Positions 3,688 to 13,217 of a stretch of DNA of 35,880 nucleotides are shown piece by piece. Numbering within the stretch: the stretch's first letter is position 1; each line of letters opens with the position of its first letter. The DNA comes from Bacteroidota bacterium (GTDB lineage Bacteria; Bacteroidota; Bacteroidia; Chitinophagales; Saprospiraceae): the NCBI GenBank assembly GCA_017857395.1, contig JAFMDF010000063.1, positions 1-35,880 on the forward strand, written 5' to 3'. A program made the translations under genes and the position numbers. Under the pieces are notes generated by a model that worked only from the letters and a program-made list of their open reading frames with translations, was not told where the DNA came from and did not search any database.

Positions 3688-3771
3688 CAATTTTCAATTT
3701 TCAATTTTCAATTTTCAAAGGGTATCAATTGAAGACCTTGTTTGAAAATTGAAAATTGAAAATTGAAAATT
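3688..3771. terminator. 31-bp-stem heptad hairpin between convergent genes
   Basis: Four and a half CAATTTT units (3688-3718) are mirrored exactly by TTGAAAA units at 3741-3771, giving a 31-bp inverted repeat with a 22-base spacer. It begins right after the DUF4097 stop and overlaps the stop codon of the convergent aminotransferase. Position and symmetry suit a bidirectional transcription block; its AT-rich stem is unlike a classic terminator, so activity is inferred. Confidence 0.6.
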
Positions 3772-5023: not shown

Positions 5024-5145
5024 GGTACACGGTTGACAATGTACGGTATACAGTTAATTGAGTTACTCAAATCAACCGTTTTTCGTTAGCAAGTATTTAT
5101 TAATGTTTTTTTCCATGGTTTCTTGTACACCGTCAACCGTGTACC
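5024..5145. repeat. Inverted heptad repeat, GTACACC family
   Basis: Arms at 5024-5044 and 5125-5145 match inversely at 19 of 21 bases. The flanking bases extend the 7-base phase (units such as GTACACC and GTGTACC). Between them, 5058-5070 is the odd palindrome TTGAGTTACTCAA. The pair lies just upstream of the aminotransferase start; a single related arm occurs near 33983-34000. Confidence 0.65.
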
Positions 5146-5322: not shown

Positions 5323-5921
5323 TTTTCAATTTATAATTTTCAATTTTCAATTTTCAAACGGGCTCAGAATGATAGAAAGTGGCTGTAGATTAAAGCTTAT
5401 TCAATAATCATTCTTCTAAGAACGCTAGGTTCGCCCAAAATTAGTTAATAAAATAAAATATTATCAAAATAATATTTTGATTTATGTTTAAAATGCAGAA
5501 TTTTATTTATTTTAAATAAACTCTTTTCAGGTTATTATTTTAGGGTTAAAAATAATATTTTAATTATATTTATTTAATAAAAATAAATACGAACAAAATA
5601 CTGTTTTAAAGATAAAAATACTTTTAATACAGAATATTATTTCGTGTAATTTATGTATTAATCAAAAATTTGAGCGAACCTAGCGTAAGAAACGATAAAA
5701 ATAAGTCTATCAATACCTTCAGATTCTGGTATTTATCACTATTTTAAAATTTTAATCCTGATAACTCTCATGGACTAAATTGAAAATTGTCAAAACAGAA
5801 GCTATTCTATTTTATAAAAAACACTTCCTTATTGTCTTTAAATCGATTATTGAATGGGAATAAGTTATTTCGCTACTGCATGCTTTTTGAAAATTGAAAA
5901 TTGAAAATTATAAATTGAAAA
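5323..5921. repeat. 36-bp perfect inverted repeats flanking the MITE-like element
   Basis: Bases 5323-5358 and 5886-5921 are perfect reverse complements over 36 bases. They belong to the CAATTTT heptad family but share an irregular TTTATAATTTT interruption, which shows common origin and not just low complexity. Both run into ACGGG. The MITE-like element sits between them. Confidence 0.75.
5423..5685. mobile_element. MITE-like element with TAAGAA target-site duplication
   Basis: A 263-base AT-rich non-coding element. Its ends are inverted: CGCTAGGTTCGC at 5423 and GCGAACCTAGCG ending at 5685, with similarity continuing into CAAA. TAAGAA flanks both sides (5417-5422 and 5686-5691), as expected for a 6-base target duplication. 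An internal palindrome with 8-base arms lies at 5463-5481. It has no open reading frame, so it would need a transposase encoded elsewhere. Fragments identical to its left end sit at both window edges. Confidence 0.75.
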
Positions 5922-6294
5922 CGGGTGGACATCGTAGATTTAAACAGCTTTTACTGCAAAATATTAACATAGAATGGGTGAATTAACAAAAAACTCCTTT
6001 TCTTTGCAGCTTATTTTTAGAAAATCAAGTAAAACCGTATTTCTATAATCAAATTTTTTCTGGTAGAAAGTTATACTAAAGTGTTGAACAACTTTAATTT
6101 AAGTAAGAAATTTTAAAAAATTGTTTTATTGTTAAATTGTTTTATTGTTGATTTAAGTGACATACTATCAACAATATATCAATAAAACCATATAACAAAT
6201 TATAAAAGTTAAATACTCAAAATTAATCATCGTGCTTCTTCAACTAAAAATAACGCCCCTACTAGATTTATTTTTAAATTGAAAATTAACAATC

Positions 6295-10153: not shown

Positions 10154-10249
10154 TGTCAGAAGTCAGACCGTCAATTACATTGACTGTCAGAAGTCAGATA
10201 AGCACTAAGCAATCTGACTTCTGACAATGCAATGGTCTGACTTCTGACC
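10154..10249. repeat. Inverted GTCAGAA heptad pair without a gene
   Basis: Between fadJ and the SDR gene. Each arm has two GTCAGAAGTCAGA units around a short centre; arms at 10154-10199 and 10211-10249 are inverted and 11 bases apart. The outer 15 and inner 14 bases pair perfectly while the centres differ. This is the empty counterpart of the pair that encloses the four-helix-bundle gene. Confidence 0.75.
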
Positions 10250-12578: not shown

Positions 12579-13217
12579 AGAAGTCAGAAGTCAGACCGTT
12601 TATTTCATAAACTGTCAGAAGTCAGACTTGGCTTTCGTCTAATTAGAAAAATATTAATTTAAACTTATAGACTATACACCTTTTGATTTAACAAAATATT
12701 TACTAGTTTTAAAACTATTTTTTAACTAAACAAAACTATAATGAGACATAACTTTAAAAATCTCGAAATTTGGAAACGTTCAAGAAAATTAGTCAAAAAT
12801 GTTTATTTGACAACTAAAACCTTTCCGCCAGAAGAAAAATTTTCCTTAATATCTCAAATGAACAGGGCTGCCATTTCTATACCTTCAAACATAGCTGAAG
12901 GTTGTGGTAGAAGTACAGATGCTCAACTAGTTTACTTTTTGGATATAGCCATTGGCTCAAATTGTGAATTAGAAACCCAATTTTATTTGGCTTATGATAT
13001 TGAATATATTTCAGCCGAAACTTTGGATAAGTTCACCGATGAAATTGCTCAAATCAGAAGAATGACTATAAGGTTTAGTGATAAATATCGTAAGTAGAGG
13101 TCAGGAGTCAAACCGAAAATTAAAATTTATTGTCAGAAGTCAGACTTGAGACGGGTTCAACGTCACGTATCTGACTTCTGACAGTTTATGTAATAAACGG
13201 TCTGACTTCTGACTTCT
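12579..13217. mobile_element. Inverted-repeat element carrying a four-helix-bundle gene
   Basis: Arms 12579-12626 and 13170-13217 are reverse complements at 47 of 48 bases. Each arm consists of GTCAGAA-type heptads around a TTTAT..ATAAA core that is itself self-complementary. The enclosed 543 bases carry one complete gene on the plus strand, opposite to the thiolase and fadJ genes on either side. The arms stop 12 bases from the fadJ start codon and 2 bases from the thiolase stop codon. A degenerate third arm lies at 13101-13147. No target duplication was found. Mobility is inferred, not shown. Confidence 0.6.
12741..13097 (+). CDS. Four-helix-bundle protein (S23 / 23S rRNA intervening-sequence protein family)
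   Basis: A 118-residue protein with family hallmarks: an N-terminal NFKNLEIWKRSRKLV segment, FPPEEKFSLISQMNRAAISIPSNIAEG in the middle, and a C-terminal helix around IAQIRRMTIRFSDKYRK. This family is encoded in 23S rRNA intervening sequences of Leptospira and Coxiella and shares its fold with Avd of diversity-generating retroelements; its biochemical role is not settled. Here no rRNA or reverse transcriptase is nearby. The gene runs opposite to the fatty-acid cluster that it interrupts and is framed by 48-base inverted repeats. Start is the only in-frame ATG upstream of the conserved region. Confidence 0.9.
   Translation: MRHNFKNLEIWKRSRKLVKNVYLTTKTFPPEEKFSLISQMNRAAISIPSNIAEGCGRSTDAQLVYFLDIAIGSNCELETQFYLAYDIEYISAETLDKFTDEIAQIRRMTIRFSDKYRK

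What the first reader, a model, noticed from the sequence alone, without database searches (positions are those of the whole stretch)
12579..13217. Four-helix-bundle gene enclosed by 48-bp inverted repeats inside a beta-oxidation cluster
Arms at 12579-12626 and 13170-13217 match inversely at 47 of 48 bases and enclose one complete S23/IVS-protein gene. Arms plus gene fill the whole space between thiolase and fadJ, on the opposite strand. The known design of 23S rRNA intervening sequences is a base-paired stem around the same protein; here the same layout occurs between protein genes. It may be an intergenic relative of rRNA intervening sequences, or a protein that recognises its own repeats. 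The family's fold kinship with the retroelement accessory protein Avd makes a nucleic-acid role plausible.
Basis: partly seen in the sequence, partly recalled or inferred. Interest (0 to 1): 0.72.

Follow-up and report, generated by a model that had tools for sequence, protein, structure and literature searches.

The report
S23 genes inside seven-base mirror repeats
The small gene between two fat-burning genes belongs to a widespread kind of apparently mobile DNA: a gene of unknown function (S23) enclosed by mirrored runs of a seven-base word, usually a different word for each gene, which may connect two old puzzles, the inserts in ribosomal RNA genes and the seven-base repeats scattered through many bacterial genomes.

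Summary
The 48-bp inverted arms (47/48) around an S23/IVP gene (12741-13097) are real. The 13-mer GTCAGAAGTCAGA occurs 161 times in this 10-Mb genome (reversed control 0); 18 of 20 fetched places away from S23 are palindromes. Inverted arms are common around S23 genes generally: score >=15 in 41 of 53 in the genus, 43 of 76 in named genomes and 11 of 30 best-scoring phylum loci, against 10 of 398 control genes. Arms favour period 7; the word usually differs between genes, covaries with the protein, and is G-rich upstream. Cyanobacterial plasmids give filled and empty versions of the same junctions (Picosynechococcus 7003/7002, Nostoc C052/C057). A published 23S rRNA intervening sequence has tandem heptamers just upstream of its S23 gene. 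Best reading: small mobile elements with S23 as core, rRNA intervening sequences being the same design inside rRNA, with REPIN-like gene-less satellites in this genome. Not shown: binding, enzyme, transposition. Against: 9 of 55 genus genes lack significant arms; satellites are weak in a second genome; one junction carries different words in different species; no clear target duplication; heptamer loci of Xanthomonas were reported as stable.

The parts
12579..12626 (+). left arm (half-element): GTCAGAAGTCAGA - mini-hairpin GTTTAT/ATAAAC - GTCAGAAGTCAGA
12741..13097 (+). S23 / 23S_rRNA_IVP four-helix-bundle gene, 118 aa
   Evidence: PF05635 E 5.7e-37; TIGR02436; solved relatives 2gsc and 2rld, 5 chains each
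13098..13144 (+). extra left half-element (GGTCAGGAGTCAAACC - hairpin - GTCAGAAGTCAGA), directly after the stop codon
   Evidence: D1, D2
13145..13169 (.). short core of the gene-less palindrome
   Evidence: compared with the copies
13170..13217 (-). right arm, inverse of 12579-12626 at 47 of 48 bases
10154..10248 (.). gene-less GTCAGAA palindrome between the SDR gene and fadJ

Best explanation
The feature is one copy of a widespread family of small mobile elements whose only gene is S23/IVP and whose ends are inverted arrays of a seven-base word peculiar to that S23 lineage. SHOWN: arms, period, polarity, covariation of word and protein, S23-free versions of filled sites, low dN/dS of S23, and in this genome matching gene-less repeats. 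INFERRED: the S23 pentamer (ring of five four-helix bundles) reads about one heptad per subunit on single-stranded or RNA arms, and so protects, folds or delivers the element's nucleic acid; cleavage or reverse transcription comes from a host or other enzyme; gene-less palindromes are mobilised in trans, as is proposed for REPINs and RAYTs; in a transcript the arms fold into one long stem, which lets the element sit inside operons or rRNA with little harm. rRNA intervening sequences would be this element landed in rRNA.
For: Inverted arms: 46 of 55 genus loci at p<=0.05, 57 of 78 named, 9 of 14 plasmid, 16 of 30 phylum; score >=15 in 41/53, 43/76 and 11/30 against 10/398 control genes and 0/88 of those up to 200 aa. 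Excess identity at lag 7 in four S23 sets (3.2-10.2%) against 1.0 and -0.7 in intergenic controls. G>C in the left arm 39/45, 45/54 and 12/12. Protein and repeat similarity correlate at places without homologous flanks (r 0.19, 0/500 permutations; wrong orientation -0.03). Own arms recur at >=2 places of the genome sample in 8/10 (5/7 for families not used to choose the sample), foreign arms in 8/35 and 9/50. Filled and S23-free sites. dN/dS 0.05-0.38 in 14 of 18 chosen pairs, 4 saturated. Closing stem, z -7. Heptamers in the Coxiella IVS.
Against: 9 of 55 genus and 21 of 78 named loci show no significant arms; in the phylum set lag 24 (3.3) slightly exceeds lag 7 (3.2). In a second genome (G041) arms recur (8/13) but dispersed matches hardly exceed the reversed control (3/9 with >=2 places, mean 1.0 against 0.67). 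The GTCAGAA 13-mer occurs in all 9 genus genomes and CAGTAGG pairs in G007 and G008, although none of the S23 genes examined there carries that word. At the thiolase-fadJ junction the word is GTCAGAA in G000 but of AGAGAGT type in G001, G002 and G004. No clear target duplication. S23 is not markedly basic (mean net charge +0.6, 167 genes). Heptamer loci of Xanthomonas were reported as stable and not tied to mobile elements (PMC4692102). No enzyme identified; no binding or movement tested.
Confidence: 0.6

Rival explanations
1. The heptad palindromes are independent elements and S23 is a homing passenger that enters their loops, each S23 lineage preferring one word.
For: In the window S23 lies next to a complete gene-less palindrome. 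At the Nostoc TraM site one plasmid has a palindrome with similar arms but no S23 (L266) and another a palindrome of a different word (L269). The GTCAGAA 13-mer greatly outnumbers S23 genes.
Against: In two plasmids of Nostoc C057, in Picosynechococcus 7002 and in Calothrix NIES-4105 the corresponding site lacks both gene and arms. S23 genes in G041 have arms although cognate gene-less copies are nearly absent from an 800-kb sample.
Confidence: 0.16
2. The heptads are regulatory binding sites or terminators around S23, multiplied locally by slippage; there is no mobile element.
For: TAACTGA heptamer arrays were proposed as binding sites of a post-transcriptional regulator (PMC4679880). Heptamer loci of Xanthomonas were reported as stable (PMC4692102). 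G-rich upstream arms can resemble ribosome-binding sites in some cyanobacteria.
Against: S23-free versions of otherwise matching junctions; inverted pairing; similar words around related S23 at places without homologous flanks; copies far from any S23.
Confidence: 0.14
3. The palindromes are ordinary REPINs moved by a Y1 (RAYT) transposase, and S23 is incidental.
For: Layout like REP/RAYT (PMC2817692, PMC3116915, abstracts); the genome has 7 Y1_Tnp matches.
Against: None of the 7 Y1 loci held contains six heptad words of the S23 families; the inverted-arm test, possible for 5 of 7, found non-heptad palindromes at L204, L205 and L207.
Confidence: 0.05
4. Chance or compositional artefact of AT-rich spacers.
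For: Some arms are short and AT-rich (for example L044, L045), and arms of L004 and L011 match the sample hardly better than their reversed controls.
Against: Mismatched-pair, size-matched gene and intergenic controls; G-rich arms in Gemmatirosa, Azospirillum and Nostoc.
Confidence: 0.01

Closest known systems
23S rRNA intervening sequences (IVS) with S23p ORF, e.g. Coxiella burnetii IVS (PMC4990558, abstract and passages read)
   Different: Lies in rRNA and is cut out by RNase III; there the authors think S23p is not expressed and is decaying. Here: intergenic, gene-specific words, low dN/dS of S23, dispersed gene-less copies in the window genome
RAYT / REP / REPIN systems (PMC2817692, PMC3116915, abstracts read)
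   Same: Gene flanked by inverted repeats, repeat-protein covariation, dispersed intergenic inverted doublets matching the resident gene
   Different: No Y1 transposase; a small four-helix bundle with no catalytic domain found; arms are period-7 arrays
Diversity-generating retroelement Avd (bAvd, PF22296 / NF033474)
   Same: Related four-helix-bundle family (weak HMM matches; passages of PMC10053308)
   Different: Matches below both curated cut-offs; reverse transcriptase and template repeat not looked for
Heptameric tandem repeats of Xanthomonas/Nostoc (GGGAATC; PMC4692102) and Beggiatoaceae/cyanobacteria/Bacteroidetes (TAACTGA; PMC4679880), passages read
   Same: Dispersed, mostly intergenic, period 7; in Xanthomonas G-rich, four units preferred, 70 and 75 inverted pairs in two genomes
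   Different: Term searches of the main texts found no S23 or four-helix gene; Nostoc 7120 had few inverted pairs; Xanthomonas loci reported as stable; whether S23 sits inside such arrays was not testable here

Membership tests
PF05635 / TIGR02436 S23-IVP protein family | profile match over the curated cut-off | tested here: met
   126.6 bits against 33.8; 118.5 against 24
rRNA intervening sequence | lies inside an rRNA gene | tested here: not met
   between fadJ and thiolase; no Rfam match in the window; 0 of 167 S23 loci contain any of four 23S words recalled from memory
rRNA intervening sequence | inverted terminal repeats forming a stem around the ORF | tested here: met
   47 of 48; closing stem in the RNA fold, z -7.0 over 20 shuffles
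rRNA intervening sequence | excised by RNase III without ligation | not testable with these tools
   needs RNA data
RAYT/REPIN | Y1 tyrosine transposase as the flanked gene | tested here: not met
   the flanked gene is S23; no heptad word in any of 7 Y1 loci
RAYT/REPIN | dispersed inverted doublets matching the resident gene's flanks | tested here: inconclusive
   window genome 8 of 10 arms, 5 of 7 for families not used to choose the sample; weak in G041, 3 of 9
DGR Avd | match to the Avd profile over cut-off | tested here: not met
   28 bits against 80 (NF033474); 20.7 against 40 (PF22296)
DGR Avd | adjacent reverse transcriptase and template/variable repeats | not tested
   neighbouring genes scanned are beta-oxidation, SDR and TetR genes; no dedicated search made

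The most novel reading that the evidence does not exclude
S23 proteins are repeat-reading rings of a new class of bacterial mobile element: each lineage carries its own seven-base address, one heptad per subunit of a pentamer, mobilises itself and gene-less satellites without a transposase of its own, has spread through several phyla, and gave rise to the rRNA intervening sequences and to part of the heptamer repeats described in cyanobacteria and Xanthomonas.
Probability: 0.4. Interest if true: 0.93.

Novelty: new variant of a known kind. Interest (0 to 1): 0.84.

Why it matters
S23/IVP matches occur in 157 of 198 sampled Bacteroidota genomes, and the family is described as having no known function (PMC4990558). 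Giving it a partner (its own heptad arms), an element layout and filled/empty sites makes its function, and the origin of rRNA intervening sequences, directly testable. It may also explain heptamer repeats treated until now as simple sequence repeats.

Tried and rejected
Y1/RAYT transposases as drivers: 7 loci, none with heptad words. A permissive 16-mer, 2-mismatch search for dispersed copies did not separate from the reversed control, and exact 12-mers did so poorly (own 9/10 against 7/10 reversed); 13- and 14-mers did better. Replication of the satellite result in G041 was weak. Net charge as support for nucleic-acid binding: not informative. Phage records: no S23 match. Rfam: no match in the window. 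Target-site duplication: only a possible 4-bp TTAG at one site, not claimed. The Anabaena 90 / Dolichospermum pair has 99% identical flanks but a different spacer, so it is not used as a clean empty site. Literature: 10 searches; no listing showed a paper linking S23 genes to heptad arms as a general feature; only listings, abstracts or passages were seen, and the library holds open-licence papers only, so this is not proof of novelty.

Selections and dropped rows. One search kept the 80 loci most similar to the window protein of 587 or more, so that set leans to the window's subfamily and holds some related species; loci are the best-scoring ones. Of 63 S23 rows, 57 were examined (6 fragment rows not fetched); 2 of 57 and 2 of 80 were dropped for short flanks. 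One search used only loci with arm score >=15 (92 of 137) and set aside 87 of 4186 pairs with homologous flanks. Of 24 plasmid records, 14 were examined (the 15 covering >=80% of the query, minus H11, which I took to be a copy of H10). At the TraM site 7 of 29 matching records were read, at cas10|cmr3 2 of 24, at nrdB|nrdA 2 of 2, at cas6|cas4 2 of 12. The 668-kb sample is not random: most stretches and one come from contigs known to hold GTCAGAA or CAGTAGG; the recount gives families not used in that choice 5/7 (mean 4.4; reversed 0.6), without hand-picked arms 6/7, and in the 216 kb chosen by contig number alone a mean of 0.9 (reversed 0.1) against 0.37 and 0.14 for foreign arms. Arms of L004, L009 and L010 were picked by eye. 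L004 and L011 match hardly better than their reversed controls, so six families (L001, L003, L005, L006, L007, L009) carry the result. The 56 places include 4 that are arms of S23 genes themselves (without them 47 of 52 intergenic). Flank definitions differ slightly between calls, hence totals of 53 and 55, and 74, 76 and 78. The 18 pairs were chosen by hand and include one broken gene (L015). The 20 GTCAGAA places were chosen from clustered matches in a listing capped at 100 of 161.

Full report
WHAT IS THERE. The arms are real: 12579-12626 and 13170-13217 match inversely at 47 of 48 bases. They enclose an S23/IVP gene (12741-13097; PF05635 E 5.7e-37; TIGR02436) between fadJ and thiolase. Two details change the picture. 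First, the right side has the layout of a complete gene-less palindrome beginning directly after the stop codon (13098-13217); the left side is a half-element. Second, a palindrome of the same kind without a gene stands at 10154-10248 between the SDR gene and fadJ, and its 13-mer occurs 161 times in the genome, with 0 for the reversed pattern, and 10 to 161 times in each of the 9 genomes of the genus (reversed 0). Of 20 places fetched from clustered matches, 18 show the motif in both orientations and 2 only a half-element.

FINE STRUCTURE OF THE GTCAGAA FAMILY. A full half is GTCAGAAGTCAGA - mini-hairpin - GTCAGAAGTCAGA. In 48 units of distinct context, 79% have a hairpin stem of at least 5 perfect pairs, against 14% when left and right halves are re-dealt; 11 different stem sequences occur, so pairing is kept while the sequence changes. 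Folded as RNA, the whole window element closes by pairing of its arms (z -7.0, 20 shuffles).

OTHER S23 GENES. The window genome has 11 S23 matches. Most have short repeats nearby, but with other words, such as CAGTAGG, CGAGTTG or ATGATGA. I aligned the left flank with the reverse complement of the right flank and compared with mismatched pairs of loci. Significant at p<=0.05: 46 of 55 usable genus loci, 57 of 78 usable named loci, 9 of 14 plasmid loci, 16 of 30 phylum loci. With a fixed score of 15: 7 of 11 own, 41 of 53 genus (own included), 43 of 76 named, 11 of 30 phylum, against 10 of 398 other genes of the window genome sample and 0 of 88 of those up to 200 aa. Genus loci without significant arms: L008, L009, L010, L026, L029, L055, L056, L057, L060; L009 and L010 do have tandem repeats nearby, not inverted ones.

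PERIOD AND POLARITY. Excess base identity in S23 flanks at lags 7, 14 and 21 is, in percent, genus 5.7, 3.2, 3.1; named 4.9, 3.0, 3.2; phylum 3.2, 1.3, 2.7; plasmids 10.2, 8.2, 7.4; intergenic controls 1.0, -0.3, 0.1 (own genome) and -0.7, -1.6, 1.8 (named, 46 segments). In the genus, named and plasmid sets lag 7 exceeds every other lag from 3 to 29; in the phylum set lag 24 (3.3) slightly exceeds it. Upstream arms have G>C in 39 of 45 (6 G<C), 45 of 54 (5 G<C, 4 ties) and 12 of 12. Median arm length is 31-32 nt, about four and a half heptads.

WORD AND PROTEIN. Over pairs of S23 loci without homologous outer flanks, protein similarity correlates with arm similarity (r 0.19; 0 of 500 permutations), not with arms in the wrong orientation (-0.03); for protein similarity 0.8-1 (6 pairs) mean arm similarity is 0.57 against 0.21 in the wrong orientation. 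The correlation is modest: many related pairs have different words. Examples that share words: L023 and L024 in different genomes, L050 and L051 on different contigs of one genome. dN/dS is 0.05 to 0.38 in 14 of 18 hand-chosen pairs (0.075 for L050/L051); 4 are saturated.

GENE-LESS COPIES. In a 668-kb sample of the window genome, exact 14-mers of the arms of its own S23 genes recur at two or more places for 8 of 10 arms (mean 4.8; reversed 0.8), against 8 of 35 arms from other genus genomes and 9 of 50 from named genomes. The sample was partly chosen from contigs known to hold GTCAGAA or CAGTAGG; for families not used in that choice the count is 5 of 7 (mean 4.4; reversed 0.6), and in 216 kb chosen by contig number alone the own mean is 0.9 (reversed 0.1) against 0.37 and 0.14 for foreign arms. 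Of 56 places of six families, 51 are intergenic (47 of 52 without the S23 genes' own arms), although about 79% of the sample is coding. This did not replicate clearly in G041, a single-contig genome of the same order: 8 of 13 S23 genes have arms of score >=15, but only 3 of 9 arms have two or more dispersed places (mean 1.0; reversed 0.67). Within the genus, CAGTAGG pairs occur in 5 of 9 genomes: three with an S23 of that word (G000, G003, G004), and G007 and G008, where no examined S23 has it. Enclosing arms look general; satellites depend on the genome.

PRESENCE AND ABSENCE AT ONE SITE. At the thiolase-fadJ junction of the genus, S23 is present in G000 (GTCAGAA arms), G001, G002 and G004 (AGAGAGT-type repeats; G004 only partly held) and absent in G003, G006 and G007; G003 instead has a broken S23, closest in sequence to that of G004, with AGAGAGT-type arms in the fadJ-SDR junction. 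The difference of words at the same junction means either repeated insertion or replacement of arms; I cannot tell which. Cleaner cases are on named plasmids. TraM|next gene: filled in Nostoc C052 and N. edaphicum, empty in two plasmids of Nostoc C057, a palindrome of similar arms but no S23 in ATCC 53789, and a palindrome of another word in a third C057 plasmid. cas10|cmr3: filled in Picosynechococcus 7003, empty in 7002 (12-bp gap). nrdB|nrdA: filled in N. edaphicum, empty in Calothrix NIES-4105. The spacers also differ by unrelated bases and no clear target duplication is seen.

LINK TO rRNA INTERVENING SEQUENCES. The Coxiella 23S IVS (abstract and passages read) has a 28-bp terminal stem, an S23p gene, and upstream of its start two or three GACAGAT heptamers plus GACAGAA, varying between strains. 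This is the same layout with one more word. Only this one rRNA case could be checked. PMC11270868 (one passage) reports IVP ORFs in rRNA insertions of CPR bacteria.

MECHANISM. Most likely S23 recognises its own heptads. Solved relatives 2gsc and 2rld have five chains each, and the Xanthomonas S23p is described as a homopentameric toroid, so one heptad per subunit on an arm of four to five heptads is an attractive, untested model. The window S23 matched no catalytic family in the scans made, so the moving enzyme would come from elsewhere; Avd kinship (weak matches, same calls) suggests, but does not show, reverse transcription.

WHAT IS KNOWN. Heptamer repeats are described in Xanthomonas and Nostoc (186 arrays in one Xanthomonas genome, four units preferred, 70 inverted pairs, 89% intergenic; few inverted pairs in Nostoc; PMC4692102) and in Beggiatoaceae and others (PMC4679880). 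Term searches of both main texts for S23 and four-helix wording found nothing. Against my reading, PMC4692102 reports increased stability around the repeats, 90% of them between the same genes in two Xanthomonas species, and generally no association with mobile elements. RAYT/REPIN abstracts describe the same logic with a transposase. My ten literature searches listed no general link between S23 and heptads.

VERDICT. A real, general and, as far as I could search, unrecognised association: an intergenic, gene-specific variant of the IVS layout with REPIN-like satellites in at least one genome. Binding and movement remain to be shown. On re-checking, confidence went from 0.62 to 0.60 because of the non-random sample and the stability report.

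Noticed in passing
window 5323-5921: 36-nt arms of TTTTCAA-type repeats, 100% complementary, enclose 527 nt without an ORF of 80 aa; inside lies a second inverted pair, 5422-5442 / 5666-5686 (90%).
   Followed up: partly
window 3689-3771, 1629-1766, 5024-5145, 6093-6226: Further gene-less inverted pairs, mostly with period-7 words; 1637-1751 and 6120-6184 share exact 13-mers with the arms of S23 genes elsewhere in the same genome (L005, L006).
   Followed up: partly
L218, L222, L228: In three cyanobacterial plasmids S23 genes sit inside CRISPR gene clusters (cas6|cas4 twice, cas10|cmr3 once).
   Followed up: partly
L204, L205: Two Y1 transposase genes of the window genome are flanked by their own palindromes (AGACCTCAGAGAGGTCT; AGTCCCTTTAGGGACT), an ordinary RAYT/REP-like layout beside the S23 one.
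   Followed up: no
L153, L100, L116: S23 flanks in three Bacteroidales MAGs contain mini-hairpins between short repeats (GACCGCTTCGCTGT type), like the GTCAGAA family of the window.
   Followed up: partly
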